Shown piece after piece: positions 1 to 56,747 of a stretch of 57,181 nucleotides of DNA. Every line of letters begins with the position of its first letter. Position 1 is the first letter of the stretch. A program made the translations under genes and the position numbers. The notes below the pieces were generated by a model that ran no database searches, was not told the origin of the DNA, and worked only from the letters and a program-made list of their open reading frames with translations. The DNA lies in IMG/VR virus record IMGVR_UViG_3300015360_000051, positions 1 to 57,181 of that record; one strand, written 5' to 3'. Source of the stretch: a virus.

Positions 1-245
1 ACGGTCAACTCCACCGTGACGGTGGATTGCCTGCTGTCGAGTGGCCGGACGGGGAAAATTATTGGGTTGTGAAAGGCAAGCGCCACCGTGATGGAGGCCT
101 GCCTGCCGTCGAGTGGGCGGACGGTAGCGAGTCGTGGTATATCAATGGCAAAGAAGTTCCTCCTCCTCCTCCTCCTCCTCCTCCTTCCTGCGCTGGGTTT
201 ATTGAAATTGAAGGTAAGAAATACAAATTGGTTGAATGCGAATGA
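1..245 (+). CDS. MORN-2-like repeat protein, 5'-truncated
   Basis: This reading frame is open from the left edge of the window (first full codon at base 3) and ends at TGA 243-245, so the start lies outside. The visible part holds two 24-residue repeats of the HRDGGLPAVEW type. They are followed by a run of nine prolines coded by (CCT)9 and a C-terminal cap ending GKKYKLVECE. The repeat resembles the MORN-2 repeat of YwqK-type proteins, which are expected to form short beta-hairpins; the molecular role is unknown. It is the first member seen of a tandem family of eight, and its stop overlaps the next start as ATGA. Confidence 0.75.
   Translation, partial: GQLHRDGGLPAVEWPDGENYWVVKGKRHRDGGLPAVEWADGSESWYINGKEVPPPPPPPPPSCAGFIEIEGKKYKLVECE
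159..185 (+). repeat. (CCT)9 microsatellite coding polyproline
   Basis: Nine CCT codons encode a nine-proline linker between the last repeat and the C-terminal cap. Paralogues have six copies (821-838), four copies (3534-3545) and two prolines elsewhere, so copy number differs from gene to gene without breaking the frame. Confidence 0.9.
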
Positions 246-901
246 AAACGTATACAGTAATCATCGATGACCAAGGGACCGTCTACTGGTACAATAAAGA
301 CGGTAAGTATCATCGCGAAGGTGCCCTACCTGCTATCGAACAGGCAGACGGAACCAAGAAATGGTACAAAAACGGTCTCCACCACCGTAATGGTGGCTTG
401 CCTGCCGTCGAGTGGGCAAATGGAGGCAGGGAGTGGTGGGTGGATGGAAATTTTCACCGCGAAGGAGACTTGCCTGCCATCGAATATGCAGACGGAGCCA
501 AGGAGTGGTTTGCGAATGGACTCCTCCATCGTGGCGGAGGCCTGCCCGCCATCGGACTGGCCAGCGGGACCAAGAAATGGTACAAAAACGGCCTTCGCAA
601 TCGTGACGGTGGGTTGCCTGCTATCGAATACGCAGACGGAACCAGGAGCTGGTGGAAAGACGGTCAACTCCATCGAGCAGGAGGGTTGCCTGCTATCGAG
701 TGGTTAGACGGGAAAAGGGAGTGGTTTGTGAACGACCACCGTCATCGTGATGGAGGCCTGCCTGCCGTCGAATACGCAGATGGAAGTAGGGAGTGGTTTG
801 TAAACGGTGAAGAGGTTTTGCCTCCTCCTCCTCCTCCTTCCTGCGCTGGTAAAATTGTTGAAATTGACGGCAAGAAATACAAATTGGTTGAATGCGAATG
901 A
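242..901 (+). CDS. MORN-2-like repeat protein, 7 repeats with polyproline and C-terminal cap
   Basis: ATG at 242 overlaps the previous stop (ATGA) and gives the N-terminus MKTYTVIIDDQG shared with later paralogues; an ATG two codons upstream (236) is a less likely start. After a short leader containing WYN..G come seven consecutive 24-residue repeats (roughly residues 23-190), then six prolines and the cap SCAGKIVEIDGKKYKLVECE. The family is rich in Trp, Tyr, His and charged residues and has no signal peptide or membrane segment. Function is unknown. Its 3' end overlaps the next paralogue, suggesting translational coupling along the array. Confidence 0.8.
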   Translation: MKTYTVIIDDQGTVYWYNKDGKYHREGALPAIEQADGTKKWYKNGLHHRNGGLPAVEWANGGREWWVDGNFHREGDLPAIEYADGAKEWFANGLLHRGGGLPAIGLASGTKKWYKNGLRNRDGGLPAIEYADGTRSWWKDGQLHRAGGLPAIEWLDGKREWFVNDHRHRDGGLPAVEYADGSREWFVNGEEVLPPPPPPSCAGKIVEIDGKKYKLVECE

Positions 902-1269
902 AAACGTATAAGGTAACCATGGACGGCGGGGATACCTGCTGGTACAATAAAGACGGTAAGTATCACCGCGAAGGTGCCCTACCTGCTATCGAACAGGCAG
1001 ACGGAACCAAGAAATGGTACAAAAACGGTCTGTATCATCGTGACAACGACCTGCCTGCCGTCGAGTGGGCAAACGGAGCCAAGTTTTGGTACAAAAAAGG
1101 GGAATGCCATCGAGCAGGAGGGTTGCCTGCCATCGAGTTGCCAAACGGGGATAAGTTTTGGATTGTGAACGGGCATCGTCATCGTAACTGGGGGTTGCCT
1201 GCCGTCGAGTACGCAGATGGAAGCAGGGAGTGGTTTTCAAACGGAGAGAGAATAAATCCTCCTTCCTGA
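898..1269 (+). CDS. MORN-2-like repeat protein, 4 repeats, cap lost to a premature stop
   Basis: Starts at ATG 898 (ATGA overlap with the preceding stop) with the family N-terminus MKTYKVTMDGGDTCWYN. Four 24-residue repeats follow. The frame then reaches Pro-Pro-Ser and a TGA at 1267-1269, exactly where paralogues have the TGC codon of the cap. The bases after that TGA still read, in the same frame, as a diverged cap (AVKIDGEKYRLECK) ending at TGA 1312-1314. The protein therefore appears to have been shortened by a nonsense change. Function is unknown. Confidence 0.75.
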   Translation: MKTYKVTMDGGDTCWYNKDGKYHREGALPAIEQADGTKKWYKNGLYHRDNDLPAVEWANGAKFWYKKGECHRAGGLPAIELPNGDKFWIVNGHRHRNWGLPAVEYADGSREWFSNGERINPPS

Positions 1270-1314
1270 GCTGTTAAAATTGACGGGGAAAAATACAGAT
1301 TGGAATGCAAATGA
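1267..1314 (+). pseudogene. Relic of the C-terminal cap of the preceding repeat gene
   Basis: In the frame of the preceding gene, the codons after TGA 1267-1269 encode AVKIDGEKYRLECK and then TGA. This matches the intact cap seen in paralogues (KIVEIDGKKYKLVECK). The relic's terminal TGA overlaps the next gene's ATG as ATGA, as intact family members do, which supports this being the ancestral end of the gene. Confidence 0.7.
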
Positions 1315-1964
1315 AAAAATATACAGTAATCATCGATGAAGGGGATACCTGCTGGTACAGCGAAAAAGGTGTCCTTCACCGTGAAGGAGGCTTGCCTGCT
1401 ATCGAGCAATCGAACGGCCGCAAGGAATGGCGTGTGAATGGTTCCCTCCATCGTGACGGAGGCCTGCCTGCCGTCGAAAAGGCCGATGGAACCAAGCAGT
1501 GGTACGTAGACGGTCAATTTCATCGTGATGGAGACCTGCCTGCTATCGAGTGGGAAAACGGCGGTAAGGAGTGGTACAAAAACGGCCAATTCCACCGTGA
1601 CGACGACCTACCAGCCGTTCTGCGAGCAGATGGGCGCAAGGAATGGTGGATAAATGGTCGTCTCCACCGTGACAACGACTTGCCCGCCCTTGAGTGGTTA
1701 GACGGAGCCAAGTTTTGGTACAAAAAAGGGGTATGCCACCGAGCAGGAGGGTTGCCCGCAATTGAGAAGGCAGACGGGACCAAATACTGGTATGTGAACG
1801 GGCAGCAACATCGTGACGACGACCTACCTGCCGTCGAGTACGCAGATGGAAGTAGGGAGTGGTGGATAAATGGTCGTCTCCATCGTGACGGCGACTTGCC
1901 AGCCATAGAGAAGGCAGACGAAACCAAATACAGATTGGAATACAAATGGAAACGTATAAAGTAA
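1311..1964 (+). CDS. MORN-2-like repeat protein, 7 full repeats
   Basis: Start chosen at ATG 1311 (MKKYTVIIDEGDTCWYSEKG), which overlaps the relic stop of the preceding gene; an upstream ATG at 1305 would add two residues. Seven full repeats and a broken eighth follow. Where other paralogues have prolines and the cap, this protein ends in a different short basic tail (YRLEYKWKRIK). Part of that tail is coded by bases that overlap the start of the next gene at 1946. The chimeric end suggests a deletion or recombination between neighbouring copies. Function is unknown. Confidence 0.75.
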   Translation: MKKYTVIIDEGDTCWYSEKGVLHREGGLPAIEQSNGRKEWRVNGSLHRDGGLPAVEKADGTKQWYVDGQFHRDGDLPAIEWENGGKEWYKNGQFHRDDDLPAVLRADGRKEWWINGRLHRDNDLPALEWLDGAKFWYKKGVCHRAGGLPAIEKADGTKYWYVNGQQHRDDDLPAVEYADGSREWWINGRLHRDGDLPAIEKADETKYRLEYKWKRIK

Positions 1965-2470
1965 CAGTCGATGACCAAGGGAATACCTACTGGTACAATG
2001 AAAAAGGTCTTCTTCATCGTGACGGAGGCCTGCCTGCCGTCGAGTGGGCAACCGGGAAAAAGGAGTGGTGGAAGGATGGTCAACTCCATCGTGAAGGCGG
2101 GTTGCCCGCTATCGAACACCCAGATGGAGGCGAGTCGTGGTTGGCAGGAACCAAGTGTTGGTATCTGAACGGCCTTCTCAACCGTGAAGGGGGGTTGCCT
2201 GCCGTCGAGTACGCAGACGGAAGTAGGGAGTGGTACAAAAACGGTCAGCTCCACCGTGACGGCGACTTGCCAGCCATAGAGAAGGCAGACAAAACCAAAT
2301 ACTGGTTTGTGAACAACCGCCTCCACCGTGAAGGCAACCTGCCCGCCATCGAAAAGGCAAATGGACTCAGGGAGTTTTTTGTAAATGGCAAAGAAGTTTT
2401 CCCTCCTTCCTGCGCTGGTAAAATTGTTGAAATTGACGGCAAGAAATACAAATTGGTTGAATGCAAATGA
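1946..2470 (+). CDS. MORN-2-like repeat protein, 5 repeats with cap
   Basis: ATG 1946 gives METYKVTVDDQGNTYWYNEKG, the family leader, and overlaps the previous gene by 19 bases. Five repeats follow. The second is irregular, with a few extra residues (GGESWLAGTKCWYLNG) that look like a partial fusion of two units. The protein ends with two prolines and an intact cap (KIVEIDGKKYKLVECK). Its TGA overlaps the next ATG. Function is unknown; placement and architecture match the rest of the array. Confidence 0.78.
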   Translation: METYKVTVDDQGNTYWYNEKGLLHRDGGLPAVEWATGKKEWWKDGQLHREGGLPAIEHPDGGESWLAGTKCWYLNGLLNREGGLPAVEYADGSREWYKNGQLHRDGDLPAIEKADKTKYWFVNNRLHREGNLPAIEKANGLREFFVNGKEVFPPSCAGKIVEIDGKKYKLVECK

Positions 2471-3027
2471 AAACGTATAAAGTGACCATTGACCAAGGGA
2501 CCACCTGCTGGTACAACGAGGAAGACTGTTTTCATCGTGACGGTGACCTGCCTGCTATTGAACAGGCAGACGGCGGAAAACAGTGGTGGAAAGATGGTCA
2601 GCTCCACCGCGATAACGGACTGCCCGCCATCGAATGGCCGCACGGGACCAAGCAGTGGTACGTGAACGGCAAGCGTTTCCGTGACGGAGACCTGCCTACC
2701 ATCGAGTGGGCCAGTGGACATCTGGAATGGTGGGTGGGTGGTCATTTTAATTACCGTGACGGAGACCTACCTGCCATTAAGCGAGAGACCGGATGTAAGA
2801 CAGGTTATGTAGAAAACCGCCTCCACCGTGGCGGTGGGTTGCCTGCGGTCGTGCGAGAGGACGGACACCGGGAATGGTGGGTAGACGGCCAACTCCATCG
2901 TGACGGTGGCCTGCCCGCTATCGAAGGGATAAACGGGGGAAAGTGGTGGTACGTGAACGGCAAGCGTTACAGTGACGGAAACCTGCCTGCCATCGACGGG
3001 CCAGACGAACACAAGGTGAAGGAATAA
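2467..3027 (+). CDS. MORN-2-like repeat protein, 6 repeats, no cap
   Basis: Starts at ATG 2467 (MKTYKVTIDQGTTCWYNEED) in an ATGA overlap with the previous stop. Six repeats are followed by a truncated seventh ending DGPDEHKVKE. The fourth repeat is diverged (ETGCKTGYVENRL). No polyproline or cap is present, so the protein probably ended by recombination inside a repeat. The stop TAA overlaps the next start as TAATG. Function is unknown. Confidence 0.77.
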   Translation: MKTYKVTIDQGTTCWYNEEDCFHRDGDLPAIEQADGGKQWWKDGQLHRDNGLPAIEWPHGTKQWYVNGKRFRDGDLPTIEWASGHLEWWVGGHFNYRDGDLPAIKRETGCKTGYVENRLHRGGGLPAVVREDGHREWWVDGQLHRDGGLPAIEGINGGKWWYVNGKRYSDGNLPAIDGPDEHKVKE

Positions 3028-3605
3028 TGCAAACGTATAAAGTAACAGTCGATGGCCAAGGGAGTATCCACTGGTATACCAAAGAAGGCTCTCGCCATCG
3101 TGAAGGTGGATTGCCTGCCATCGAACACACAGACGGAGGTAAGGAGTGGTGGAAAAATGGTGGGCGTCACCGTGACGGAGGTCTGCCCGCATCCGAATGG
3201 GCAGACGGTACCAAGGAATGGTGGATGGACGGTAAGCAACACCGCGACGGAGGTTTGCCTGCTGTCGAATGGCCAGACTGTTCTAAACAGTGGTGGGTGG
3301 GCGGAAAACTCCATCGCGACAACGACTTGCCCGCCCTTGAGTGGTTAGAAGGGCATAAGGAGTGGCACGTAAATGGCCAGCGCCATCGTGACAACGACTT
3401 GCCCTCTGTCAAGTTCTCAAACGGGGACAATCATTGGTGGAAAAACGGAAAACGTCATCGTGACGGCGGATTGCCTGCTATTATTCGAGCAGACGGTAGA
3501 CAGTCGTGGTATATTGATGGCAAAGAAGTTTCGCCTCCTCCTCCTTCCTGCGCTGGTAAAATTGTTGAAATTGACGGCAAGAAATACAAATTGGTAAGTA
3601 TGTGA
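3027..3605 (+). CDS. MORN-2-like repeat protein, 6 repeats with cap
   Basis: ATG 3027 overlaps the preceding TAA and gives MQTYKVTVDGQGSIHWYTKEG. Six repeats follow, some with substitutions at conserved positions (for example LPSVKFSNG). Four prolines coded by CCT repeats lead to a cap ending GKKYKLVSM. The stop overlaps the GTG start of the next paralogue. Function is unknown. Confidence 0.78.
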   Translation: MQTYKVTVDGQGSIHWYTKEGSRHREGGLPAIEHTDGGKEWWKNGGRHRDGGLPASEWADGTKEWWMDGKQHRDGGLPAVEWPDCSKQWWVGGKLHRDNDLPALEWLEGHKEWHVNGQRHRDNDLPSVKFSNGDNHWWKNGKRHRDGGLPAIIRADGRQSWYIDGKEVSPPPPSCAGKIVEIDGKKYKLVSM

Positions 3606-4276
3606 AAACGTATAAGGTAACCGTGTACGAAATCGGAGATAGTCGTTGGTACAACGAGGATAGTCGCCTCCATCGTGACGACGACTTGCCTGCCGTTGAA
3701 CGACCAGACGGTACCAAAGAGTGGTGGAAGGATGGTCTCCTCCACCGTGAAGGCGGACCTGCTATCGAGCTACTAGACGGTCGTAAGGAGTGGTACAAAA
3801 ACGGGAAACTTTGCCGTGACGACGACTTGCCTGCCGTCGAATATTCGGACGGCTCTAAACAATGGTGGAAAGACGGTCAACTCCACCGCGATGATGATTT
3901 GCCTGCCGCTGAATGGGCGAGTGGGGAAAGGCAGTGGTGGGTGGACGGTAAGCAACACCGCGATGGTAGATTGCCTGCTCGCTCGCGGGCAGACGGAAGC
4001 AAGGAATGGTGGAAAAGGGGGAATCGTCACCGTAATGGTGGCTTGCCTGCCATCGAGTGGGCAAATGGAACTAAAGAGTGGTACAAAAAAGGGAACCTTC
4101 ACCGCGATAAAGACTTGCCTGCCATCGAATATGCAGACGGAACCAAGTTTTGGTATAAAAACGGCCTCCCCCATCGTGACGGAGACCTGCCCGCCGTTGA
4201 ATATCCAAACGGGCATAAGGAATGGTGGGTAGACGGAGACCTCGTAAGGAGTCTTTGTCTCTATAATGAACCATAA
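3602..4276 (+). CDS. MORN-2-like repeat protein, 8 repeats, last of the array
   Basis: GTG at 3602 overlaps the previous stop (GTGA) and begins MKTYKVTVYEIGDSRWYNED. Eight repeats follow; the second has lost one residue (GG-PAIE). There is no polyproline or cap, and the tail VRSLCLYNEP is unique. This is the last gene of the left array and is followed by a short intergenic region with a possible promoter for the SbcC-like gene. Function is unknown. Confidence 0.77.
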   Translation: MKTYKVTVYEIGDSRWYNEDSRLHRDDDLPAVERPDGTKEWWKDGLLHREGGPAIELLDGRKEWYKNGKLCRDDDLPAVEYSDGSKQWWKDGQLHRDDDLPAAEWASGERQWWVDGKQHRDGRLPARSRADGSKEWWKRGNRHRNGGLPAIEWANGTKEWYKKGNLHRDKDLPAIEYADGTKFWYKNGLPHRDGDLPAVEYPNGHKEWWVDGDLVRSLCLYNEP

Positions 4277-19730: not shown

Positions 19731-20876
19731 ATGGCTAACAAATGGACGGAACAACTAAAAAAGCTCGACGGAGCAATGAAAAAGCGGATAGATAGATTTG
19801 CGAATGTCATCCGCACACCTTCCCCATCCACCAATTTCATTTTTGGGAACACTCACGGAATGCCTCTAGGGTATTCGACTCTGTTATGGGGCCCTCCAGG
19901 TGGGGGAAAGTCGTTGTTGACCAATGCTACCATTGGACAACTCCATCGCGACGACCCAGAAGCGATTGCTGTAAAATTTGATACCGAGTTCAGAGACGAC
20001 GGTCAAATGTCTGAGGAGACCTTGCGGTCATTTGGGGTTGACCCCGACCGATATATCGTTTTTGAAGTCAACCGACCTGGAGAGGTATTCGACGTTTTTG
20101 CGGGCGAGATTTACGCCCTAATCCAAAAGGGCGCTCCAATTAAATTAGCGATAATCGACTCCATCAACGGCATTCAGGGCCGGAGAGAGGCCGAGCTAGA
20201 GTCGGTTGAACAGTATACTATCGGAGACCACGCCCAGACACTCCAGATAGGGCTTAAAAAGATTTTGCCAGTGCAGAGGCGTGGAAATCTGCATCTGATT
20301 CTAGCCTGTCAGCAGCGCGCTGAGATGGACAGCCTAGAACAAAAACGAGGTAACAAAACGAAGGCGGCGGCAAGTTTCGGTGTTCTACATCATTGTGAGT
20401 ATTTCGTTTACGTCGAACGGAACAAAAACAAGGCTGGCCGAGTCGATGAGCTAGGAAACTCGTTTGAGGATGCGTCACGAAAAGACGTGACTGACGCTGC
20501 CGATATCACCGGTCACAAAATAGCTGTCTGGATGCAAAAATCATCCGTCGGCCCGGCGGGGAGAAGTGCTGAATTCACCATCGACTACAAGGGAGGGATA
20601 ATAAATCAGCATGAGGAAATTTTCCGTCTTGGAACTAAATGGGGGATTATCGAGCGAGTCAACAATACAACCTACGCCCTGGCCGGTTCAAAATTTGTAG
20701 GAAAACCCGCATTGTTAGACGGGCTAAAGAAGTCTCCAGACCTGCAAAAACTGGTGATTAGAGAGCTTTTGAATGCTGAAAAAAGCGCTCGGATTCCGAC
20801 GGTCATCACCGACGAAATCCTAGAGTCTCCAGACGATGACTCTGACGAAGTCACAAAACTCCTGGCAGGGGGCTGA
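19731..20876 (+). CDS. RecA/UvsX-like recombinase
   Basis: 381 residues with Walker A GPPGGGKS (about residues 54-61), Walker B (LAIIDSINGI, about 141-150) and a conserved Gln in LILACQQR, as in RecA-fold strand-exchange ATPases. Expected to form filaments on ssDNA and promote recombination-dependent replication and repair. It is located just after the terminator in a new transcription unit. Its TGA overlaps the ATG of a small repeat gene (TGATG), implying coupled translation. Confidence 0.85.
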   Translation: MANKWTEQLKKLDGAMKKRIDRFANVIRTPSPSTNFIFGNTHGMPLGYSTLLWGPPGGGKSLLTNATIGQLHRDDPEAIAVKFDTEFRDDGQMSEETLRSFGVDPDRYIVFEVNRPGEVFDVFAGEIYALIQKGAPIKLAIIDSINGIQGRREAELESVEQYTIGDHAQTLQIGLKKILPVQRRGNLHLILACQQRAEMDSLEQKRGNKTKAAASFGVLHHCEYFVYVERNKNKAGRVDELGNSFEDASRKDVTDAADITGHKIAVWMQKSSVGPAGRSAEFTIDYKGGIINQHEEIFRLGTKWGIIERVNNTTYALAGSKFVGKPALLDGLKKSPDLQKLVIRELLNAEKSARIPTVITDEILESPDDDSDEVTKLLAGG

Positions 20877-21166
20877 TGATGGACGAAAATGCTGGTCCAT
20901 GGCTAGACGGGCGCAAGGTATGGAAAGTGAACGGTCAGCTCCACCGTGACGGCGACTTGCCAGCCGTTGAGCGACTAGATGGGCGCAAGGAGTGGTGGAT
21001 AGGCGGCCAGCGTCATCGTGACGGCGGCCTGCCTGCCGTTGAGTGGGCAGACGGGACACGAGCATGGTATAGAGCTGACGAATTGCTGATGATTTTAAGC
21101 GCTGACGAGGTTCAGACTTTGGTACTCTACCTACTCGCCAAAAATGAGCCTGTCAAGGCATCGTAA
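20876..21166 (+). CDS. Small MORN-2-like repeat protein inside the replication operon
   Basis: 96 residues, starting at ATG 20876 overlapping the recombinase stop. It has a partial first unit (GRKVWKVNGQL), two full repeats (HRDGDLPAVERLDG and HRDGGLPAVEWADG) and a non-repeat C-terminal helix (ELLMILSADEVQTLVLYLL). It overlaps the primase start at 21144. Its position between recombinase and primase, coupled at both ends, suggests either insertion by repeat recombination or a link to the replisome. Function is unknown. Confidence 0.75.
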   Translation: MMDENAGPWLDGRKVWKVNGQLHRDGDLPAVERLDGRKEWWIGGQRHRDGGLPAVEWADGTRAWYRADELLMILSADEVQTLVLYLLAKNEPVKAS

Positions 21167-22184: not shown

Positions 22185-22613
22185 ATGAAAACATACAAAC
22201 TGACAGTCTCTCCAGATGGAGCGTCCCGCGTGTATTACGATGACGGATTTGAAAGCCCACACCGTGACAACGACTTGCCCACCGTCGAATGGTTCGACGG
22301 CTCTAAACAATGGTACAAAAACCGTGTCCTCCACCGCGAAGGTGGCTTGCCTGCCGTTGAGTGGGCGTGTGGACATAAAGAGTGGTTTATAAAAGGCAAA
22401 CTCCACCGTGATGGAGACCTGCCTGCAATTGAGAAGGCAGACGGGACCAAGCAGTGGTGGATAAAGGGGGACCTCCATCGCGATGGAGGCCTGCCTGCCG
22501 TCGAGAATGCGGACGGGACCAGAGAGTGGTGGACAAAAGGTGTCCGCCACGGTAAACTTCCTCCTACTGTTATAAACATTGGCAGCAAGAGATATAAATT
22601 GGTGGAGATTTAG
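22185..22613 (+). CDS. MORN-2-like repeat protein between primase and helicase
   Basis: 142 residues starting MKTYKLTVSPDGASRVYYDDG, the family leader. Four repeats and a truncated fifth (TKGVRHGKLPP) follow, then a variant cap (INIGSKRYKLVEI) that replaces the polyproline cap of the left array. TAG 22611-22613 overlaps the GTG start of the helicase. This is the second repeat gene wedged into the replication operon, so the family is not confined to accessory ends. Function is unknown. Confidence 0.78.
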   Translation: MKTYKLTVSPDGASRVYYDDGFESPHRDNDLPTVEWFDGSKQWYKNRVLHREGGLPAVEWACGHKEWFIKGKLHRDGDLPAIEKADGTKQWWIKGDLHRDGGLPAVENADGTREWWTKGVRHGKLPPTVINIGSKRYKLVEI

Positions 22614-44813: not shown

Positions 44814-44858
44814 GAATGGCCCGGTCGCCCTTTTGGATGACCGGGCCATTCTCTTTTT
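44814..44858 (+). terminator. Rho-independent terminator after the capsid gene
   Basis: Perfect 13-bp stem gaatggcccggtc (44814-44826) with gaccgggccattc (44839-44851), a 12-base loop and TCTTTTT (44852-44858). It separates the forward head operon from the convergent reverse block. Confidence 0.9.
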
Positions 44859-45153
44859 ATTCGGTTTTGGCTGTTGCGGAATACGAACGATAGCTACGAA
44901 TCACTGAGTAGTGTTGTTCGAGTGACCGGTTTTTTGAATGGACCACCTGATATTCGATGTTACGCGCTTTCAGCGTAGTGAAAAGGGTGGTCACGTCAGA
45001 GTCCTCTTCGAGATAGACCGTCTTCCCCTTGACGTAGGAATAATGGGTGATGGCGTCAGCAATCTCTAACTTGTGTAAGAGAGCGAGCTTGACGGCCAAC
45101 CAGCCGTGGCCTGGGTCAGAATAGAACTTGAACTTGAGAATTTTGTTGTCCAT
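44857..45153 (-). CDS. Conserved-looking small protein, reverse strand
   Basis: 98 residues starting MDNKILKFKFYSDPGHGWLAVK. The order FYSDPGHGW ... ITHYSYVKG ... YLEEDSD is of a type seen in uncharacterised plasmid and phage proteins, to the best of my recognition. It is last in the reverse block and expressed from the copied promoter at 45160-45188. Function is unknown. Confidence 0.65.
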   Translation of the reverse strand: MDNKILKFKFYSDPGHGWLAVKLALLHKLEIADAITHYSYVKGKTVYLEEDSDVTTLFTTLKARNIEYQVVHSKNRSLEQHYSVIRSYRSYSATAKTE

Positions 45154-45228: not shown

Positions 45229-45522
45229 TCAACGGCGGCTATCGTTCACCCACCACTGCTTTTCCCCACTTGCCCATTCGACGGCGGGCAGGCCACCATC
45301 ACGGTGACGCTGGCCACCCACCCACCATTCCTTGCCGCCGTCTGCGTATTCGACGGCGGGAAGGTCACCATCACGATGGAGAACACCGTCCACCCACCAC
45401 GACCTGTCCCCGTCTGCCCATTCGACGGCAGGCAACCCCCCTTCACGATGTAGGCGTCCCTCTTTGTTACGCCAACGGCTGGTTCCGTCTTGGACTGTCT
45501 TGTTTCCTGTGTTGTTGTCCAT
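45229..45522 (-). CDS. MORN-2-like repeat protein, 3 repeats, reverse strand
   Basis: 97 residues starting MDNNTGNKTVQDGTSRWRNKEG, the leader type of the reverse-strand subfamily (MDN/MDD rather than MKTYKV). Three repeats follow, the last ending WWVNDSRR; no cap. Eighteen bases separate it from the preceding repeat gene, and that spacer (AATAACCACCAGGTTGAGT on the coding strand) recurs before the gene starting at 46293. It is probably co-transcribed with that upstream gene. Function is unknown. Confidence 0.75.
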   Translation of the reverse strand: MDNNTGNKTVQDGTSRWRNKEGRLHREGGLPAVEWADGDRSWWVDGVLHRDGDLPAVEYADGGKEWWVGGQRHRDGGLPAVEWASGEKQWWVNDSRR

Positions 45523-45540
45523 TTTTACTCAACCTGGTGG

Positions 45541-45849
45541 TTATTCGCCGTCCCGGACACGGAGTTTTCCGTACACGTACCACTCCTTGCGCCCGCTTGC
45601 CCACTCGACAGCAGGCAAGCCTCCGTCGCGGTGTTGCTGGCCGTCCACCCACCATTCCTTGCCGCTTGCCCGTTCAACGGCAGGCAACCCTCCACCACGG
45701 TGGAGGCGTCCGTTTACGTACCACTCTTTGGTACCGTCTGCCTGTTCGAGGGCGGGCAATCCACCATCACGGTGGAGAAGACCTTGTTTGTTGAGCCAGA
45801 AGACGGTTCTGTCTGCTTCAACTACTTTTCTTTCTTCGTTGTTGTCCAT
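45541..45849 (-). CDS. MORN-2-like repeat protein, 3 repeats, reverse strand
   Basis: 102 residues starting MDNNEERKVVEADRTVFWLNKQG. Three repeats are followed by a short non-repeat end (YGKLRVRDGE). One repeat has lost a residue (ERASGKEWWVDG). Expressed from the second copy of the 77-bp promoter cassette; ATG at 45849 lies six bases after the -10 box. Function is unknown. Confidence 0.75.
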   Translation of the reverse strand: MDNNEERKVVEADRTVFWLNKQGLLHRDGGLPALEQADGTKEWYVNGRLHRGGGLPAVERASGKEWWVDGQQHRDGGLPAVEWASGRKEWYVYGKLRVRDGE

Positions 45850-45915
45850 TTATTTAATCTACAGGGAATTGGATTGAATGTCAATCAATTAATTCACCTA
45901 GACAGTGGTAGGTGA
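45839..45915 (-). repeat. 77-bp perfect direct repeat, copy 2 (promoter cassette)
   Basis: Identical to 45143-45219. It contains TTGACA (45884-45879) and TAGATT (45861-45856) with a 17-base spacer and places ATG 45849 six bases downstream. Duplication of this cassette equipped two different genes with the same promoter. Confidence 0.95.
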
Positions 45916-45918
45916 GTC

Positions 45919-46293
45919 TCATCTACGGTGGTGGACACCGTTTGTCCACCATTCCTTATGACTCGTTATCCGCTCAACGGCAGGCAGGCCGCCACCACGA
46001 TGAAGGCGGTCGTTTATCCACCACTCTTTGGTACCGTCCACTTGCTCAATGGCAGGCAATCCACCGTCACGATGGCGAACACCGTTTGTCCACCACTCCC
46101 TATCTCCGTCTTTCCACTCGATGGCAGGCAAGTCTTTATCTCGATGGAGACTCCCCTTTTTATACCAAAACCTATCCCCATTTACCCACTCGACAGCGGG
46201 CAAGTCTCCTTCGCGATGGATAAGACCTTTTTCGTTATGCCAACGGACAGTTCCGTCTCGGTCGACTGTCTTGTTTCCTGTGTCGTTGTCCAT
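45919..46293 (-). CDS. MORN-2-like repeat protein, 4 repeats, reverse strand
   Basis: 124 residues starting MDNDTGNKTVDRDGTVRWHNEKG, close to the start of the gene at 45522. Four repeats follow; the last is diverged (ERITSHKEWWTNGVHHRR). The region upstream carries the same ACTCAACCTGGTGGTTATT spacer (as written on the + strand) found before 45522. This indicates that a two-gene segment was duplicated. Function is unknown. Confidence 0.75.
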   Translation of the reverse strand: MDNDTGNKTVDRDGTVRWHNEKGLIHREGDLPAVEWVNGDRFWYKKGSLHRDKDLPAIEWKDGDREWWTNGVRHRDGGLPAIEQVDGTKEWWINDRLHRGGGLPAVERITSHKEWWTNGVHHRR

Positions 46294-46315
46294 TTTTTAC
46301 TCAACCTGGTGGTTA

Positions 46316-46642
46316 TTATTCTGAACTGGTAAGGTGTCTTCCGTACCTGTACCACTCTTTACGTCCGTCCGCTCGCACAACGGCAGGCAATCCACCATCA
46401 CGATGGCGCTCGTTGTCCACCCACCAGCTCTTGCTCCCGTCTATGTGTTCGACGGCAGGCAAGCCGCCATCGCGGTGTTGCTTCCCATTCGCGTGCCACT
46501 GCTTGCTTCCGTCTCTCCATTCGATGGAAGGGCGACCTCCCTCACTGTGGAGTTTTCCCTCTTCATTAAAATAACGAATATTTCCTTTTTTGTCTACTAC
46601 TTTATTCCTAGAGTCTACTACTTTGCTCCCGATATCATCCAT
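46316..46642 (-). CDS. MORN-2-like repeat protein, 3 repeats, reverse strand
   Basis: 108 residues from ATG 46642 (MDDIGSKVVD); a GTG one codon upstream is possible. The leader has a small internal repetition (KVVDSRNKVVDKKGN). Three repeats follow, the first in the older-looking form (HSEGGRPSIEW), and the end YGRHLTSSE is unique. A leaderless-type promoter lies at 46649-46677. Function is unknown. Confidence 0.73.
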   Translation of the reverse strand: MDDIGSKVVDSRNKVVDKKGNIRYFNEEGKLHSEGGRPSIEWRDGSKQWHANGKQHRDGGLPAVEHIDGSKSWWVDNERHRDGGLPAVVRADGRKEWYRYGRHLTSSE

Positions 46643-46648
46643 CACAGC

Positions 46649-46677
46649 ATCCTACAAGGAATTGGATTAAATGTCAA
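46649..46677 (-). promoter_or_regulatory. Sigma70-like promoter, leaderless type
   Basis: Reverse strand TTGACA (46677-46672), 17-base spacer, TAGGAT (46654-46649), six bases before ATG 46642. The spacer is nearly the same as in the 77-bp cassettes, showing common origin. Confidence 0.72.
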
Positions 46678-46703
46678 TGAATTCAGTGTCCATCTATTTG
46701 TCT

Positions 46704-47093
46704 CTACTCAGAGACTTCTTTTCCGTCCACCCACCACTCCTTGAGTCCATTAGACCACTCAACGGCAGGCAGTCCGCCGCCACGATGACGCTGGCCGTTT
46801 TTCCACCAAGACGCATCGCTATTTTCGTTCCAACCGGCGGGCTCGTCCCAAACGGCGGGCTCGTCGCCGTCACGGTGGAGACGACCGTTTACGTGCCACT
46901 CCTTATGTCCGTCTAACAACGAGACGGCTGGCAAGTCGCCGTCACGGTGGAGCTGACCGTTTTTATACCATTGCTTGCCTCCGTCTCTCCACTCGATGGC
47001 GGGACGACCTCCCTCACGGTGGAGTTTCCCGTCTTGGTTAAAATAACGAGTATTCCCTATAGGGTCTACTACTTTGTTTTCGATATCATCCAT
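46704..47093 (-). CDS. MORN-2-like repeat protein, 4 repeats, reverse strand
   Basis: 129 residues from ATG 47093 (MDDIENKVVDPIGNTRYFNQDG). Four repeats follow; the third carries an insertion (DEPAVWDEPAGWNENSDASWW) with an internally repeated DEPA. The end GKEVSE resembles the GKEV that precedes polyproline in the left array, here without a cap. Its promoter is nearly identical to that at 46649-46677. Function is unknown. Confidence 0.73.
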   Translation of the reverse strand: MDDIENKVVDPIGNTRYFNQDGKLHREGGRPAIEWRDGGKQWYKNGQLHRDGDLPAVSLLDGHKEWHVNGRLHRDGDEPAVWDEPAGWNENSDASWWKNGQRHRGGGLPAVEWSNGLKEWWVDGKEVSE

Positions 47094-47099
47094 CACAGC

Positions 47100-50543: not shown

Positions 50544-53500
50544 ATGGCAACACCTGAGGGCGAAGCTACACATTCTGCTGAGGTTGCCCTAATCCAGGTA
50601 ACCAACGCACAGGGGCATCTGCTCCTGGGCAAACGTAACGATACCGGTAAATGGACGTTGCCTGGTGGTCACCTAGAGCACGGAGAAAGTCCAGAGAGAG
50701 GGGCTATTAGGGAGCTGTTCGAGGAGACCGGGTTGAAGCCTGAGTCTCTAACCTATGCCAGGAAGTTCAGCCCGCACGATGGGTTAACTATTCACTGTTT
50801 CACAGCTCTCTGTCTCGGAGACCCTCATGGGGACAATGACCCAGACAACGAATGCGACAAATGGGAATGGGTGGACGTTAGTGACGGCATTCCTGAGGAT
50901 ATGTGGGAGAACCTAGCGGGGCCCAAAAATGGAAATGTGGTTAAGCAGGTGTTCGACCAGAGTTTGACCAAAATGGACATTAAAGAGGTACACGATTACA
51001 ATTCGTCAATAGACGACCACGTTCCTCCGCCAACTTCCACTAATTTTCCCAGGCCTGTAAAGGATAATCCCCATCAGCATCAAATTCCTGCCAAACCTAT
51101 GGCTAAGGTCGTCCACAAGACTTCGCTAGCACAACTGAATTTATACGACCGGGAATTTCAGGGATATATCCCCGCTCCCAGCCTTGCTATCGTCCATCAG
51201 GACAAGGATTTTGACTCGTTCGGTGACGTGACCCTCATCGCTCATCCTAGGATGGTCGACCCTAGGGTAACGAACACCCATGTCTATTCGGGGGACTCCT
51301 ACTCTCCACGGAGCGGCAAGCCGATATGGCGCTCTGGACTCGAAGCTAATAATAGCTTTGCGTCAGAGGTTCACAACGACCCGACTGCTAGCGATACAGA
51401 CCGAGGAACTAGTAGATATTCAAAAGAATCGTTCGCGAGAGAGTTTGGGGAGTATTTTAATTCTCACCATTCGGTCTCCGTCTTCCACCAAGGACTATTA
51501 GCTGTCCCTGGTTCCTCCAGCGGCGATGTACCAAGAATGGTGGTCGATAGGTTCTATGCCGAACACCCCCTCGTGGGTTTTGGAGAGAGAGGACTAAATC
51601 ACCAATACTTATTTGATAACTGGCTCTCTCAGAAAATGAAGGCTAGCGGATGGCAGCGAAAATTTTCATCCTCGTCGAGTGACGGAGCCGTTGAAGACTC
51701 TGACCCCGAGACAATCCTACGCAGAATGAATAGACGCCCCACGTTCGGCGGAGAAAGTCACCTAACCCACGCCTCCGCCCGCAAGAACCCAACAATGCAA
51801 GGCATCTTGTTGGAGACAAAGAAGTTTCGCTCCTTGAACGAGATAAAGGCACATACCGGTCAATTAATTGGGCATTCCGGTATTGAGGATAATGAAGAAA
51901 AAATAAACGAACAAACACAAACTCTGAGAGATTCTCTAACTGCTGACGCCTCCAAAAGGGGCAGCACTGTCACTGACGAAGACATTGACCATGTCGTCAG
52001 AGGGGTCCACTCAGGCAAATATCGTACCGCCAAAAAAGCAGTTCAGGCGATTCTGGGAGGGGATGTAGAATCAAAATTCCCAGAAGTCAGCGGCCGAATT
52101 GAAGAGATTATCAAGCTCTCTACTAAGAGAGGTCAAGAATATTTTGAGGCCAAGCCCAGGCGCTTGGTTCATTTGTCCGAGTTTCACACCGCCGTTGTCC
52201 CTCCGACCATATTTCCGGAACAGCTCGCGACCCTCAAAAGGTACGGGCTCAATGTCGTCAAACAGGACGCAAACCCCAGCCAGGTAACCAATATAGCAAG
52301 AGACCACAACTTGCTGCTGTCAGAGCATAGCATAGACGAACTCCAGTTCGCCGAACTTCAAAAATCTGATGACATGGATATTGAGTGGCTAGCGAAAGCA
52401 ATGACCACGGAAGACGAAGTGTCGACCTTGCTCCAGCACCACGACCCGATGGAACGCAGGCTCGCGCTGCGGCTCAATACGGCCACCCCTTCCCACATCC
52501 GCCAAGGGGCCTTCGACGCCGATGAAGAAGTCTGGAAGGAGGCACTCGCCCATCCAGACTCCGCAATCGCTAAGAGGGCTGTGCTTGCCTGTACCTCGAA
52601 CGACAAAGGGGAGGACCTGTGGCCCCAACAGCAGCACTTACTAGCAGATGACAACCTGCCAGCCGAGGCCCTGGATACCCTATACTCGACCATCCTACAT
52701 GATAACGACATCGGAGATAGTTCGAGGAAGGCGCGACTAAATGAGATAGCGGGTCACCCAAACTTCGATTTCCCTACAGAGAACCCCGACCAGTCCCTCG
52801 CAAAGCATTGGGGGCACGACCTGATTGAAGGTGCGCATAATATTCACCCTCCTACGGATTCTCTCGCCCCTAATCAGGCTCATAACATTGACCGTCATGC
52901 AGCCTACAAAAACGATTTCGATTCCCACCAACATCTAGTACCGGTCAAAAATGACAAGTTAGCACAGCTAGGCGAAAACAAAAAAGTCATTCACAAGACG
53001 AAGGTTTCGAAATATATGGTCAAGCCGTGGACTGCTGGAGAGAGCATCTCCCAACAGGTATTCCACGCCGCCGGAATGGGACACATCCATCAAAAAAGTT
53101 TCACCACCGAATACGTGGACAAAAAAACGGGTAAGGGTACCCAGGCCACGGTCATCAAGATAGAGCCTTTTCACTCAACAATCGCCAGCCTGAATGGGTG
53201 GGGCGGAACTGGACGAGTTAAACACCCCCTCCCAGACGAGCCGAGGCACGACCCGGATGATTTCATTAAAGGAAACATCTTAGACGCCGCTCTAGGACAG
53301 AATGACCGACATTTAAACAATATCATGATAGATGATATCTCGGGGAAGCCTCTATATATAGATAGCGACGCGTGCGGGAAGTCCATCTATGGGAATTGGG
53401 GGGAATTTAAGGACTCAGTAGAGTTTTCTAATTTTCTCAGCCACAGTAGAAGCCATCTCGACGGACACCTAGCAAAACAATTACTGGGAGACAGAAGCGA

Positions 53501-56500
53501 GGAAGCGTTTCGCCGAAAGGTCCACAGACTGGTACAAACGTGGTGGCCTACAGTGTCAGAGCCAATTAAAGCGAAGTTGGGCGAACTAGGCGACCGAGGC
53601 CGCAGTTCTGTCCTAGAGAATATCCACAACAACGTAAGCCAACTTGACAGACTTGTCCGTGGAAAAAGCGAAGACGGCTCAGAATCTGTTAACGACGAAA
53701 ACGGCGCCCGAAAGGAATGGCGCAACGTCGAAGGTCTCATTCATCGTGATGGTGACTTGCCTGCTATTATTCGCCAAAATGGCGAGAATGCCTATTACAA
53801 AAACGGTAAACGCCACCGTGACGGTGACCTTCCTGCTATCTTGGGCGGCCCTGACGGAGGGGTAACGTATTACAAAAACGGCTTCCGCCATCGTGACGGC
53901 GACCAGCCAGCCCACAAAGACAAAGATGCGGAAGCGCATTACCGAGATGGCAAGCTCCATCGTGACGGAGGCCTGCCTGCCGTTGTGCACGCCAACGGGC
54001 GCAAGGAGTGGTACGAAGGCGGGCTTCATCACCGTGACGGAGACCTGCCCGCTATCGAATACGAAGACGGAGGTAAGGAATACCTATATCGTGGAGTGAG
54101 AGGCCGCAACGGCGAGGACAAGCCATCCATTATCCGTAATGGAACTGAAACCTACTATATGGATGACCTTATTCATCGCATGAATGACTTGCCCTCCGTA
54201 ATAGGCCCTGGGCGGGAGGAATATTTTCGACTTGGTCGTCCCCACCGTGACGGCGGCCTGCCTGCCGTCGTCGTGGACAAACCAGGAGGGGTCAAAGAAC
54301 ATCATTATTTTCTGAATGGAGTCCCGTACCGCCCGCTCGGACTACCCACCTATGATGACGGAGCAGGATATCAGGAGTGGCGGAGTGCGGACGGGCTTCT
54401 CCACCGTCTCGATGGCCCCGCTGTAATCAAGGGCGCCGTTGGAGAACCTTACGAGGAGCATTATTACAAGGATGGCAAGCTCCATCGTGAGGATGGCCCC
54501 GCTATATTCAGACGCGACGGGGGTCACGAATTCTACGAGAAAGGCGTCCAGGTATTTCAAACTGCGGATGGATACAGAACTCTCAGTAGTGGGCTAGGAG
54601 GCATCAAGCTGAAAGAGCTACGAAACAAATCCGGGGACCTCCACAGCAAAAACGACCTTCCGGCCTATATTAAGATAAGGGAGGGCGAGAGAGGGAAGGA
54701 AAGAGTTATTAGAAAAGAGTGGCACAAAGAAGGGAAGGTCCATCGTGATGGAGACCTGCCCGCCATCGAGTTGTCAGACGGAACCAAGTTTTGGTACAAA
54801 GACGGCCTCCCCCATCGTGACGGTGGATTGCCTGCCATCGAGAGACTGGACGGCAGTAAAGAATGGCACGTAAACGGTAAGCGCCATCGTGATAACGACT
54901 TGCCCGCCATCGAACAGGCAGACGGGAGCAAGGAATGGTTTGTAAATGGTAAGCGCCATCGTGACGGTGATTTGCCTGCCGTTGAATGGCAGGACGGGCA
55001 TAAGGCGTGGTATGAAAACGGTCAGCCCCACCGTGACGGCGGCCTGCCTGCGGTCGAGTGGGCAGACGGGCATAAGGAATGGAAGGTAAACGGTTATCTC
55101 CATCGTGACGGAGACCTGCCTGCCATCGAACGGCCAGACGGGGCCAGGCAGTGGTACGTACGCGGGAAACGCCATCGTGACAACGACTTGCCCGCAATCG
55201 AATGGCCAGACGGAACCAGGTCGTGGTGGGTGGACGGCCAGCATTACCGTGACGGAGGACTACCCACTATTGAACGCGCAGGAATACCAGGAGTTAAAAA
55301 AGCCCTCGAAAGCGGCTGGGCGGATAACCTCCACAGCAAACCAGACCAGATGCCCACCGTTTTTAGGGCTAATGATGCTGTAAAAAAATACAAACAATTT
55401 GAAGGAACCCACAAGACGTTTGAGACTCACGAACCCGTACAGCCGTCTAAAGCTCTTTTCCAGAAGCATGTCCAAGACTCTCCGCATCTAATACCAACCC
55501 CTCCCCCTACATCCAATATGGGAGGGGTTGAGAATAAACACGTTCACGAATTCGAGGACGATTCAGGGGCATACCATAGATTCCTAATTAAAGGGTACCA
55601 CAGCAACTACGCCATGCACAGCGGGTTTGGGGAGCTAATGTCACAGGACGCCTACCACGCCGGAAACATTGGACACCTGCATCAAAAATCCTTCGCCACC
55701 ACTGACGACCAAGGCAATCCGGCATTGGTAATTCATATGGACCATAGCAGGAATGTAGGGGTGGATGATTGGCCCGAACATGCGGAAGACTATCATAAAA
55801 TCGCAATGATGGACTTTTTGTTGCAAAATGGTGACAGACATGGTGATAATATAATGTCTCCCCCTCTGGCGATAGACAATGCTGCGTCGAGTTACATGGA
55901 CTTTTACGGGGGGAACGTACCTCCTACCCAAGAAGAACTGTGGAAGGATTCAGACGCCCTAGAAAGGATTCCAAACAACCTAGGGACCAAACACTCTCCT
56001 GGAATTAAGGAGTGGTGGAATCAAAATAAGGTAGCCATTAAGGATTCAGTTCATAGGAATTTCCGAAAAGTGCTCCCCGACGACGATGGAGACGTAAATC
56101 ATGCGCACAGTCGGTTAGATGCCCGATTTGATGACCTGGACAGTTCGGTTAACTTTAAGTTCGGTCAACACACCCGCGTTTCCGAAGGAGTCACAAACAG
56201 CCTAAACGAGCACGGCCTCGCGCACAGTTTTGACGACCAGCCCGCCCTGATAATGAGGGGCGGCGGTCTCAAAATCTGGATGAAAAATGGGGTCAAACAT
56301 CGTGACGGTGGCTTGCCTGCATATGTTGAGGACGACGGATACGAAATCCACTACAAAGACGGCAAAGTCCATCGTGACGGAGGCCTGCCCGCCATCGAAT
56401 ACGCAGACGGTGGTAAGGAGTGGCACGTAAACGGAAAAATCCACCGCGATAACGGACTGCCCGCCGTCGAACGGGCGGACGGGACCAAGGAGTGGTGGGA

Positions 56501-56747
56501 AAATGGTAAGCGCCACCGTTACGACGGCCTGCCTGCCGTTGTGCGAGCGGACGGACACAAGGAATGGCACTGGAACGGGCACCTGCATCGTAACAACGAC
56601 TTGCCCGCAATCGAATGGACAAGCGGAGGTCGGTCGTATTACAAGGACGGGAAACTCCATCGAGACGGTGGCCAGCCCGCCAAGGAACAACCAAACGGTA
56701 ACCATGAGTGGTGGGTGGACGGAAAAAACTATCCCAAACCACAGTGA
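50544..56747 (+). CDS. 2067-residue multidomain protein: Nudix, polyvalent-protein-like, HEAT-like, two kinase-like modules, MORN-2-like repeats
   Basis: Order: Nudix hydrolase (box residues 42-64, G42, E48, R56-E57, E60-E61, G63). Residues ~210-262 resemble domains of phage polyvalent proteins (PAPSLAIV, FGDVTLIA, GDSYSPR). A segment with EAKPRRLVHLSEF and TAVVPP lies near 533. HEAT-like repeats span ~611-750. Kinase-like module 1 (~816-950) has NDRHLNN at 920-926 and YIDSD. Repeat block 1 spans ~1058-1345, including older HREDGPA units, and block 2 spans ~1393-1577. Kinase-like module 2 (~1613-1800) has NGDRHGDN at 1762-1769 and LAID. Repeat block 3 spans ~1910-2066. It may be injected with DNA; activity is unproven. 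Confidence 0.7.
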   Translation: MATPEGEATHSAEVALIQVTNAQGHLLLGKRNDTGKWTLPGGHLEHGESPERGAIRELFEETGLKPESLTYARKFSPHDGLTIHCFTALCLGDPHGDNDPDNECDKWEWVDVSDGIPEDMWENLAGPKNGNVVKQVFDQSLTKMDIKEVHDYNSSIDDHVPPPTSTNFPRPVKDNPHQHQIPAKPMAKVVHKTSLAQLNLYDREFQGYIPAPSLAIVHQDKDFDSFGDVTLIAHPRMVDPRVTNTHVYSGDSYSPRSGKPIWRSGLEANNSFASEVHNDPTASDTDRGTSRYSKESFAREFGEYFNSHHSVSVFHQGLLAVPGSSSGDVPRMVVDRFYAEHPLVGFGERGLNHQYLFDNWLSQKMKASGWQRKFSSSSSDGAVEDSDPETILRRMNRRPTFGGESHLTHASARKNPTMQGILLETKKFRSLNEIKAHTGQLIGHSGIEDNEEKINEQTQTLRDSLTADASKRGSTVTDEDIDHVVRGVHSGKYRTAKKAVQAILGGDVESKFPEVSGRIEEIIKLSTKRGQEYFEAKPRRLVHLSEFHTAVVPPTIFPEQLATLKRYGLNVVKQDANPSQVTNIARDHNLLLSEHSIDELQFAELQKSDDMDIEWLAKAMTTEDEVSTLLQHHDPMERRLALRLNTATPSHIRQGAFDADEEVWKEALAHPDSAIAKRAVLACTSNDKGEDLWPQQQHLLADDNLPAEALDTLYSTILHDNDIGDSSRKARLNEIAGHPNFDFPTENPDQSLAKHWGHDLIEGAHNIHPPTDSLAPNQAHNIDRHAAYKNDFDSHQHLVPVKNDKLAQLGENKKVIHKTKVSKYMVKPWTAGESISQQVFHAAGMGHIHQKSFTTEYVDKKTGKGTQATVIKIEPFHSTIASLNGWGGTGRVKHPLPDEPRHDPDDFIKGNILDAALGQNDRHLNNIMIDDISGKPLYIDSDACGKSIYGNWGEFKDSVEFSNFLSHSRSHLDGHLAKQLLGDRSEEAFRRKVHRLVQTWWPTVSEPIKAKLGELGDRGRSSVLENIHNNVSQLDRLVRGKSEDGSESVNDENGARKEWRNVEGLIHRDGDLPAIIRQNGENAYYKNGKRHRDGDLPAILGGPDGGVTYYKNGFRHRDGDQPAHKDKDAEAHYRDGKLHRDGGLPAVVHANGRKEWYEGGLHHRDGDLPAIEYEDGGKEYLYRGVRGRNGEDKPSIIRNGTETYYMDDLIHRMNDLPSVIGPGREEYFRLGRPHRDGGLPAVVVDKPGGVKEHHYFLNGVPYRPLGLPTYDDGAGYQEWRSADGLLHRLDGPAVIKGAVGEPYEEHYYKDGKLHREDGPAIFRRDGGHEFYEKGVQVFQTADGYRTLSSGLGGIKLKELRNKSGDLHSKNDLPAYIKIREGERGKERVIRKEWHKEGKVHRDGDLPAIELSDGTKFWYKDGLPHRDGGLPAIERLDGSKEWHVNGKRHRDNDLPAIEQADGSKEWFVNGKRHRDGDLPAVEWQDGHKAWYENGQPHRDGGLPAVEWADGHKEWKVNGYLHRDGDLPAIERPDGARQWYVRGKRHRDNDLPAIEWPDGTRSWWVDGQHYRDGGLPTIERAGIPGVKKALESGWADNLHSKPDQMPTVFRANDAVKKYKQFEGTHKTFETHEPVQPSKALFQKHVQDSPHLIPTPPPTSNMGGVENKHVHEFEDDSGAYHRFLIKGYHSNYAMHSGFGELMSQDAYHAGNIGHLHQKSFATTDDQGNPALVIHMDHSRNVGVDDWPEHAEDYHKIAMMDFLLQNGDRHGDNIMSPPLAIDNAASSYMDFYGGNVPPTQEELWKDSDALERIPNNLGTKHSPGIKEWWNQNKVAIKDSVHRNFRKVLPDDDGDVNHAHSRLDARFDDLDSSVNFKFGQHTRVSEGVTNSLNEHGLAHSFDDQPALIMRGGGLKIWMKNGVKHRDGGLPAYVEDDGYEIHYKDGKVHRDGGLPAIEYADGGKEWHVNGKIHRDNGLPAVERADGTKEWWENGKRHRYDGLPAVVRADGHKEWHWNGHLHRNNDLPAIEWTSGGRSYYKDGKLHRDGGQPAKEQPNGNHEWWVDGKNYPKPQ

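What the first reader, a model, noticed from the sequence alone, without database searches (positions are those of the whole stretch)
1..4276. Large family of 24-residue MORN-2-like repeat genes in a phage
Eight adjacent paralogues, two more in the replication operon, five on the reverse strand and three blocks in a giant protein share one repeat (HRDGGLPAVEWADG.KEWWVNG). That is about 15 genes and roughly 90 repeats in 57 kb. Repeat number differs from gene to gene (3 to 8) while frame and gene-overlap architecture are kept. This looks like ongoing expansion and shuffling by unequal recombination between near-identical 72-bp units. The motif resembles YwqK/MORN-2 repeats, known from an antitoxin-type family. 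A repertoire of variable binders or inhibitors is one hypothesis; no function is shown.
Basis: partly seen in the sequence, partly recalled or inferred. Interest (0 to 1): 0.78.

Follow-up and report, generated by a model that had tools for sequence, protein, structure and literature searches.

The report
Phage's expanded MORN-like repeat gene family
A virus of bacteria has acquired and multiplied a family of small repeat-built proteins, predicted to fold like eukaryotic MORN scaffold proteins, that its closest known relatives lack entirely; their job is unknown, but genome position and predicted promoters point to proteins that grip partner molecules during takeover of the host cell.

Summary
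In detail: 92 repeats of 24 residues lie in 16 ORFs, including three blocks in a 2067-residue protein; reversed and shuffled controls give none. An AlphaFold2 model of an eight-repeat protein (pLDDT 91.7) matches solved MORN1 proteins best, although no Pfam MORN profile reaches its cut-off. So it is a MORN-fold array with its own consensus.

Units are not near-identical (mean about 61% DNA identity; synonymous sites near saturation). Units in one gene are no more alike than units in different genes. Four contigs of another repeat-bearing phage show no copy-number change. What is recently shared is the gene ends: junctions in the forward cluster, promoters in the reverse cluster. That suggests whole-gene duplication and end-swapping.

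None of ten core relatives (capsid protein 57-74% identical) has the repeats, while unrelated phages, bacteria and giant viruses do. The family is probably a horizontally acquired, lineage-specific expansion. It sits in the replication operon, in an accessory slot after the capsid gene with four sigma-70-like promoters, and inside a virion-module protein with NUDIX, PBECR-nuclease and PI3K-like kinase domains.

Best guess (0.45): diversified protein-binding scaffolds for host takeover or counter-defence, some injected. Function is inferred, not shown.

The parts
3..245 (+). MORN-like gene 1, cut by contig start; 2 repeats, poly-Pro linker, SCAG..IEGKKYKLVECE tail
236..901 (+). MORN-like gene 2, 7 repeats, C-tail PPPPPPSCAGKIVEIDGKKYKLVECE
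892..1269 (+). MORN-like gene 3, 4 repeats; first repeat 94% identical in DNA to that of gene 2; tail lost behind an early stop
1305..1964 (+). MORN-like gene 4, 8 repeats
1946..2470 (+). MORN-like gene 5, 5 repeats, C-tail present
2461..3027 (+). MORN-like gene 6, 7 repeats
3027..3605 (+). MORN-like gene 7, 6 repeats, C-tail present
3602..4276 (+). MORN-like gene 8, 8 repeats; the protein that was modelled (pLDDT 91.7)
20876..21166 (+). MORN-like gene, 3 repeats, between RecA-like ATPase and DNA primase; absent at this place in G009/G010 and G011
22185..22613 (+). MORN-like gene, 4 repeats, between primase and DnaB-like helicase; tail VINIGSKRYKLVEI
45229..45522 (-). MORN-like gene, 3 repeats
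45541..45849 (-). MORN-like gene, 3 repeats, behind promoter-like site at 45884-45856
45919..46293 (-). MORN-like gene, 4 repeats
46316..46645 (-). MORN-like gene, 3 repeats, behind promoter-like site at 46677-46649
46704..47096 (-). MORN-like gene, 5 repeats, behind promoter-like site at 47128-47100
45856..45884 (-). Promoter-like site TTGACA-17-TAGATT ending about 6 nt before the ATG; one of four (others 47128-47100, 46677-46649, 45188-45160), also found before MORN-like genes in G022
50544..56747 (+). Giant 2067-residue protein: NUDIX, PBECR5-like, two PI3/4-kinase-like domains, 20 MORN-like repeats in three blocks
53742..54560 (+). MORN block 1 of the giant protein (includes degenerate and 23-residue units), between the two kinase-like domains
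54741..55290 (+). MORN block 2 of the giant protein, between the two kinase-like domains
56211..56735 (+). MORN block 3, C-terminus of the giant protein

Best explanation
These are MORN-fold beta-repeat scaffold proteins. A conserved core (HR..GLPA.E...G..W...G) holds a stack of short beta strands together, and about seven positions per unit vary almost freely. The phage probably acquired the family horizontally and multiplied it by whole-gene duplication, with recombination at constant gene ends: the overlapping tail/start junctions in the forward cluster and the shared promoter/start block in the reverse cluster. The products most likely work as protein-protein interaction modules in host takeover or counter-defence. 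Some are made inside the infected cell from the replication operon and from sigma-70-like promoters. Others are delivered as part of the giant NUDIX/PBECR/kinase protein, which is encoded in the virion module and looks like an injected polyvalent effector. Supported by computation: repeats, predicted fold, absence in relatives, shared ends, promoter-like sites, domain fusion, purifying selection. Inferred: horizontal acquisition, injection, early expression, partner binding, counter-defence.
For: Fold: AF2 model pLDDT 91.7, top PDB matches are the MORN1 proteins 6t69/6t68/6t6q/6t4d (Foldseek E about 1e-8; Z 10.4). Acquisition: 0 of 10 core relatives have repeats (also with positive controls), and none of 16 other repeat-bearing records has this capsid protein. 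Synteny shows both replication-operon genes are insertions relative to G010 and G011, and the giant protein's G011 homologue has about 80 residues where the window has about 586 including two blocks. Shared ends: 62-65 bp exact matches at C-tails and first repeats against 61% unit identity. Selection: dN/dS about 0.3; pN about equal to pS at columns 11, 12, 15, 19, 20, 24. Expression: four TTGACA-17-TAG(A/G)(T/A)T sites directly before reverse-strand start codons. Virion context: NUDIX E 3e-21, PI3_PI4_kinase 2e-10, PBECR5 2e-7 next to head-tail adaptor genes; Mx1 has NUDIX and kinase genes at the same place. PBECR-bearing polyvalent proteins are proposed to be packaged and injected (PMC5512222). 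In G006/G008 the repeat proteins share an N-terminal ENDFMxG(L/V)D motif with neighbouring non-repeat proteins, which could be a targeting signal.
Against: No partner, target, expression or proteomic data exist. No defence or anti-defence family matches. Injection of the giant protein is inferred only from domains and gene order. The small window genes carry no recognisable virion-targeting signal. Conserved junctions could also be kept by double coding, because the tail and the next start codon overlap. The promoter sites are consensus matches, not mapped starts.
Confidence: 0.45

Rival explanations
1. Antitoxin/immunity role: the small proteins neutralise toxin domains, either of competing phages or plasmids or of the phage's own giant protein, like YwqK with YwqJ or polyimmunity loci in polymorphic toxin systems.
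For: The giant protein has a PBECR-type predicted nuclease fused to the same repeats. Arrays of different immunity genes side by side are known from polymorphic toxin systems (PMC3482391). YwqJ/YwqK is a described B. subtilis toxin/antitoxin pair (PMC6562991).
Against: No toxin gene lies next to the clusters. PBECR homologues in G011 are present with no repeat protein anywhere in that 138-kb record. No NCBIfam antitoxin model scores.
Confidence: 0.2
2. Virion or assembly role: the repeats are structural adaptors, for example internal head or decoration proteins that dock to the giant protein, and not counter-defence factors.
For: Same repeats in a virion-module protein; the reverse cluster follows the capsid gene; OspA-like flat sheets and MORN1 rods are structural.
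Against: Ten relatives with the same capsid, portal and connector genes do without any repeat protein. Two genes sit in the replication operon and eight at its head.
Confidence: 0.15
3. Mostly selfish or neutral expansion: repeat DNA that multiplies by recombination and is tolerated.
For: Sporadic distribution; copy number varies greatly between phages.
Against: 16 ORFs with 92 units stay open, and dN/dS between units is about 0.3. Units are old, not recently multiplied. Regulatory ends are conserved.
Confidence: 0.1

Closest known systems
MORN1 proteins of Toxoplasma, Plasmodium and Trypanosoma (PDB 6t69, 6t4d, 6t68)
   Same: Predicted fold: array of short beta hairpins of 23-24 residues with conserved aromatics and a glycine turn.
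   Different: 13-18% identity; the 23-residue MORN consensus has GxG, G10 and YEGEW (PMC7725318), whereas here it is HR..GLPA(V/I)E..(D/N)G.KEW. Hosts and roles differ.
Uncharacterised repeat proteins of phages and giant viruses (BFVD A0A6J5RWU4, mimivirus R871, Powai lake megavirus, Orpheovirus, Agrobacterium phage Atu_ph07, Celeribacter phage P12053L)
   Same: Same fold and recognisable sequence (30-49% identity; tblastn).
   Different: Many use a 23-residue HREDGPA form. None of the annotated phage records is described as having 16 such genes, and none found here has them fused to a NUDIX/PBECR/kinase protein.
YwqK (B. subtilis antitoxin of the LXG toxin YwqJ)
   Different: No adjacent toxin gene here; no profile match.
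Polyvalent proteins of phages (Iyer et al. 2017, PMC5512222)
   Same: Giant multidomain protein with PBECR and kinase-type domains encoded beside virion genes.
   Different: MORN repeats are not mentioned in that survey (0 occurrences), and the kinase is PI3/4K-like here.

Membership tests
Pfam MORN_2 (PF07661) / MORN (PF02493) | Profile score over the curated cut-off | tested here: not met
   PF07661 at best 13.0 bits against a cut-off of 29.6, PF02493 not listed; no match in the whole record at E<=10.
MORN repeat (structural definition, PMC7725318) | Array of about 23-residue beta-hairpin repeats with the MORN1 arrangement | tested here: met
   Predicted model only; the best-scoring solved chains are MORN1 proteins at Z 10.4, rmsd about 6 over 181-190 residues (array curvature differs).
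MORN repeat (structural definition, PMC7725318) | GxG start, G10, YEGEW and LxY motifs | tested here: not met
   Consensus is HRDGGLPAVEWADGTKEWWVNGKL: a glycine turn and NG(K/Q) are shared, but GxG and YEGEW are replaced.
YwqK-type antitoxin | Cognate toxin gene next to it | tested here: not met
   Neighbours of the clusters are SbcC-like, RecA-like, primase, helicase and capsid genes. The only nuclease-like domain is in the giant protein itself.
YwqK-type antitoxin | Neutralises a toxin | not testable with these tools
   Needs co-expression.
Polyvalent protein (giant ORF) | Several conflict-type domains in one polypeptide | tested here: met
   NUDIX, PBECR5 and two PI3_PI4_kinase stretches; the kinase domain model, at moderate pLDDT 72.5, matches PI3K and actin-fragmin kinase.
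Polyvalent protein (giant ORF) | Packaged and injected | not testable with these tools
   Only gene order among head-tail genes.
T4-type capsid targeting sequence (G006/G008 repeat proteins only) | 10-19 residue N-terminal propeptide shared by internal head proteins and cut by the prohead protease | tested here: inconclusive
   Shared N-terminal motif seen; the prohead protease PF03420 was not found in these fragments.

The most novel reading that the evidence does not exclude
The phage carries a modular MORN-fold binder library: a conserved scaffold with free surface positions, duplicated under constant ends, deployed both as separate proteins made in the host and as docking arms of an injected multi-enzyme protein, so that different arrays recruit or block different host factors.
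Probability: 0.25. Interest if true: 0.78.

Novelty: new variant of a known kind. Interest (0 to 1): 0.5.

Why it matters
If the small proteins bind different host targets on one scaffold, phages have a repeat-scaffold binder repertoire comparable in logic to ankyrin or LRR sets. A widespread but unnamed viral and bacterial repeat family would then gain a first testable role. Even without that, the case shows that an ordinary profile search misses a MORN-fold family that is abundant in viral metagenomes (MORN repeats were 37 times more frequent in long reads than in assemblies in PMC9238414), so its copy number in assembled viral genomes is probably underestimated.

Tried and rejected
Unequal exchange among near-identical units: rejected on unit identities. 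Known structure by sequence: only designed beta-propeller ('Cake') proteins scored, from sums of weak repeats, judged spurious. Pfam DUF834, DUF5818, DUF6745, Tcp10_C: weak matches to single short stretches of repeat sequence, taken as compositional or motif-like (DUF6745 at 7e-6 for a G003 protein is the only one worth a second look). NCBIfam and PADLOC: no match for the repeat proteins. Exact search of viral contigs for the forward junction found nothing; for the promoter it found only G022. Search for the N-terminal signal of G008 in known phages: nothing. Looking for a closer sister phage that has the repeats at the same loci: not found; G020/G022 are tail-module contigs of the same clade with the same C-tail, but do not overlap the window, so they may even be the missing part of the same phage.
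Full report
WHAT IS THERE. The window is a whole IMG/VR virus record of 57,181 bases, linear and probably a fragment. A profile built from its own repeat units finds 92 units over 5 bits in 16 ORFs; reversed and shuffled ORFs give none over 5 bits. Eight ORFs fill 3-4276, two lie in the replication operon (20876-21166, 22185-22613), five on the reverse strand (45229-47096), and a 2067-residue ORF (50544-56747) carries 20 units in three blocks. The consensus over 24 residues is HRDGGLPA(V/I)EWADGTKEWWVNGKL.

WHICH PHAGE. The capsid, portal and DnaE proteins are nearest to Myxococcus phage Mx1 among named phages (56, 48 and 50% identity), and to metagenome contigs G009/G010 (one phage in two contigs, 99.9% identical) and G011 (138 kb) at 57-76% for most core genes. 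More relatives were found through the capsid protein.

THE REPEATS ARE ACCESSORY AND PROBABLY ACQUIRED. None of ten core relatives, about 0.9 Mb in all, has a repeat. The same absence was seen with a single-protein query that did find eight other records, and with my own profile (best score in G009 and G010 0, G011 4.4 bits, against 26-38 in other repeat-bearing records other than the window). Conversely, none of 16 further repeat-bearing records has this capsid protein. In G010 the RecA-like and helicase genes are 119 bases apart; the window has repeat gene, primase and repeat gene between them. G011 has primase there but no repeat gene. The reverse cluster occupies the stretch after the capsid gene where G009 has other small genes and Mx1 has thymidylate synthase and a nucleotide kinase. 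The giant protein's G011 homologue has the same NUDIX and two kinase-like domains, but about 80 residues between the kinases instead of about 586. Loss in all ten relatives is the alternative to acquisition, and is less economical.

FOLD. AlphaFold2 on an alignment of 29 window and locus proteins gave pLDDT 91.7 for the eight-repeat protein 3602-4276, with a regular pattern of short strands. Foldseek's best solved matches are MORN1 proteins of Toxoplasma, Trypanosoma and Plasmodium (E about 1e-8), then junctophilin and radial-spoke MORN proteins. VIA-align gives Z 10.4 over 181-190 residues at rmsd about 6, which is expected for arrays of different curvature; CPAP G-box chains, another flat repeat sheet, lie within 1 Z of these, so the assignment rests on the combination of Foldseek rank, period and turn motif. 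Sequence profiles do not see it: PF07661 scores at most 13.0 bits against a cut-off of 29.6 and finds nothing in the whole record. The defining GxG and YEGEW motifs of MORN (PMC7725318) are replaced. It is therefore best called a MORN-fold family with its own consensus. In the viral structure library the same fold occurs in uncultured Caudovirales, mimivirus R871, Powai lake megavirus, Orpheovirus, Agrobacterium phage Atu_ph07 and Celeribacter phage P12053L, none with a named function except generic 'MORN' labels.

HOW IT GREW. Units share on average about 61% of DNA bases. Neighbours in one gene (0.615), other units of the same gene (0.613) and units of other genes (0.613) are equally alike; 270 of 500 label permutations reach the same-gene value. 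Synonymous differences are 0.42-0.68 per site and dN/dS is 0.26-0.33. The units are therefore old and under purifying selection, not freshly multiplied. In contrast, gene ends are recent: exact matches of 62-65 bp join the C-tails of genes 236, 1946 and 3027 and the first repeats of genes 236 and 892, and upstream stretches reach 89-97% identity. In the reverse cluster a block with TTGACA and TAG(A/G)(T/A)T at 17 bases, directly before the start codon, occurs four times, once before a gene that has no repeats; the same block precedes repeat genes in G022. Exchange at constant ends with whole-gene duplication is the simplest reading; constraint on overlapping tail and start codons could explain part of the forward pattern. 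T4 provides a precedent for gene amplification by recombination between short flanking homologies under defence pressure (PMC9391042). For copy-number change, the only population data at hand are four contigs of another phage (G001-G004), 99.8-99.9% identical without gaps across their repeats. This argues against rapid change there, with the caveat that short-read assemblies handle repeats badly (PMC9238414).

WHAT IT MAY DO. The conserved columns are the scaffold. At columns 11, 12, 15, 19, 20 and 24 nonsynonymous change is about as frequent as synonymous change, and it is high at 17 and 23, as expected for a surface with many partners or weak constraint. Genes sit at the head of and inside the replication operon, and behind sigma-70-like promoters. 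Longer versions are fused into a NUDIX/PBECR5/PI3K-like protein beside head-tail genes; PBECR polyvalent proteins are proposed to be packaged and injected (PMC5512222). In two other contigs, G006 and G008, repeat proteins share an N-terminal ENDFMxG(L/V)D motif with several unrelated neighbours. This looks like a targeting signal and has the length of T4 capsid targeting sequences (PMC9026906), but no prohead protease was found in those fragments. I therefore favour binding scaffolds for takeover or counter-defence (0.45), over antitoxin (0.2), virion structure (0.15) and neutral expansion (0.1). No experiment supports any of these directly.

VERDICT. New variant of a known kind; interest 0.5.

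Noticed in passing
12929-14695 and 14696-17188: DNA polymerase III alpha is split into two adjacent ORFs, the first ending about 55-60 residues after the PDIDQD motif; G010 has the same split at the same place, and in G011 the two halves are apart by about 470 bases.
   Followed up: partly
47138-47605 (-): A second kind of repeat protein, a YdcK/hexapeptide-like beta solenoid (PF18836 E 1e-15; phrog_5070), sits at the head of the reverse repeat cluster.
   Followed up: partly
44857-45153 (-): A 98-residue gene without repeats shares about 70 bases of upstream sequence, including an inverted repeat CACCTA..TAGGTG, with the repeat gene at 45849, as if a new gene had been placed behind a copied promoter.
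   Followed up: partly
G006 and G008 (L047, L050, L038): Repeat proteins and at least six unrelated neighbours share an N-terminal motif (F/L)xENDFMxG(V/L)D; possible virion-targeting or sorting signal in an uncultured myovirus.
   Followed up: partly
L094 (Neisseriaceae MAG RXKI01000080.1): At least twelve repeat-bearing ORFs side by side in a bacterial contig; whether it is a prophage was not checked.
   Followed up: no
G020/G022 (L101-L105): Tail-module contigs of the same phage clade (sheath 67% to G011) with seven more repeat genes and the same C-tail; 98.6% identical to each other over 8.2 kb.
   Followed up: partly
44316-44415: ARAGORN calls a 100-base tRNA-Val inside the major capsid gene; almost certainly a false positive.
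   Followed up: no
21144-22175: DNA primase present in the window and G011 but missing between RecA-like and helicase genes in G009/G010.
   Followed up: no
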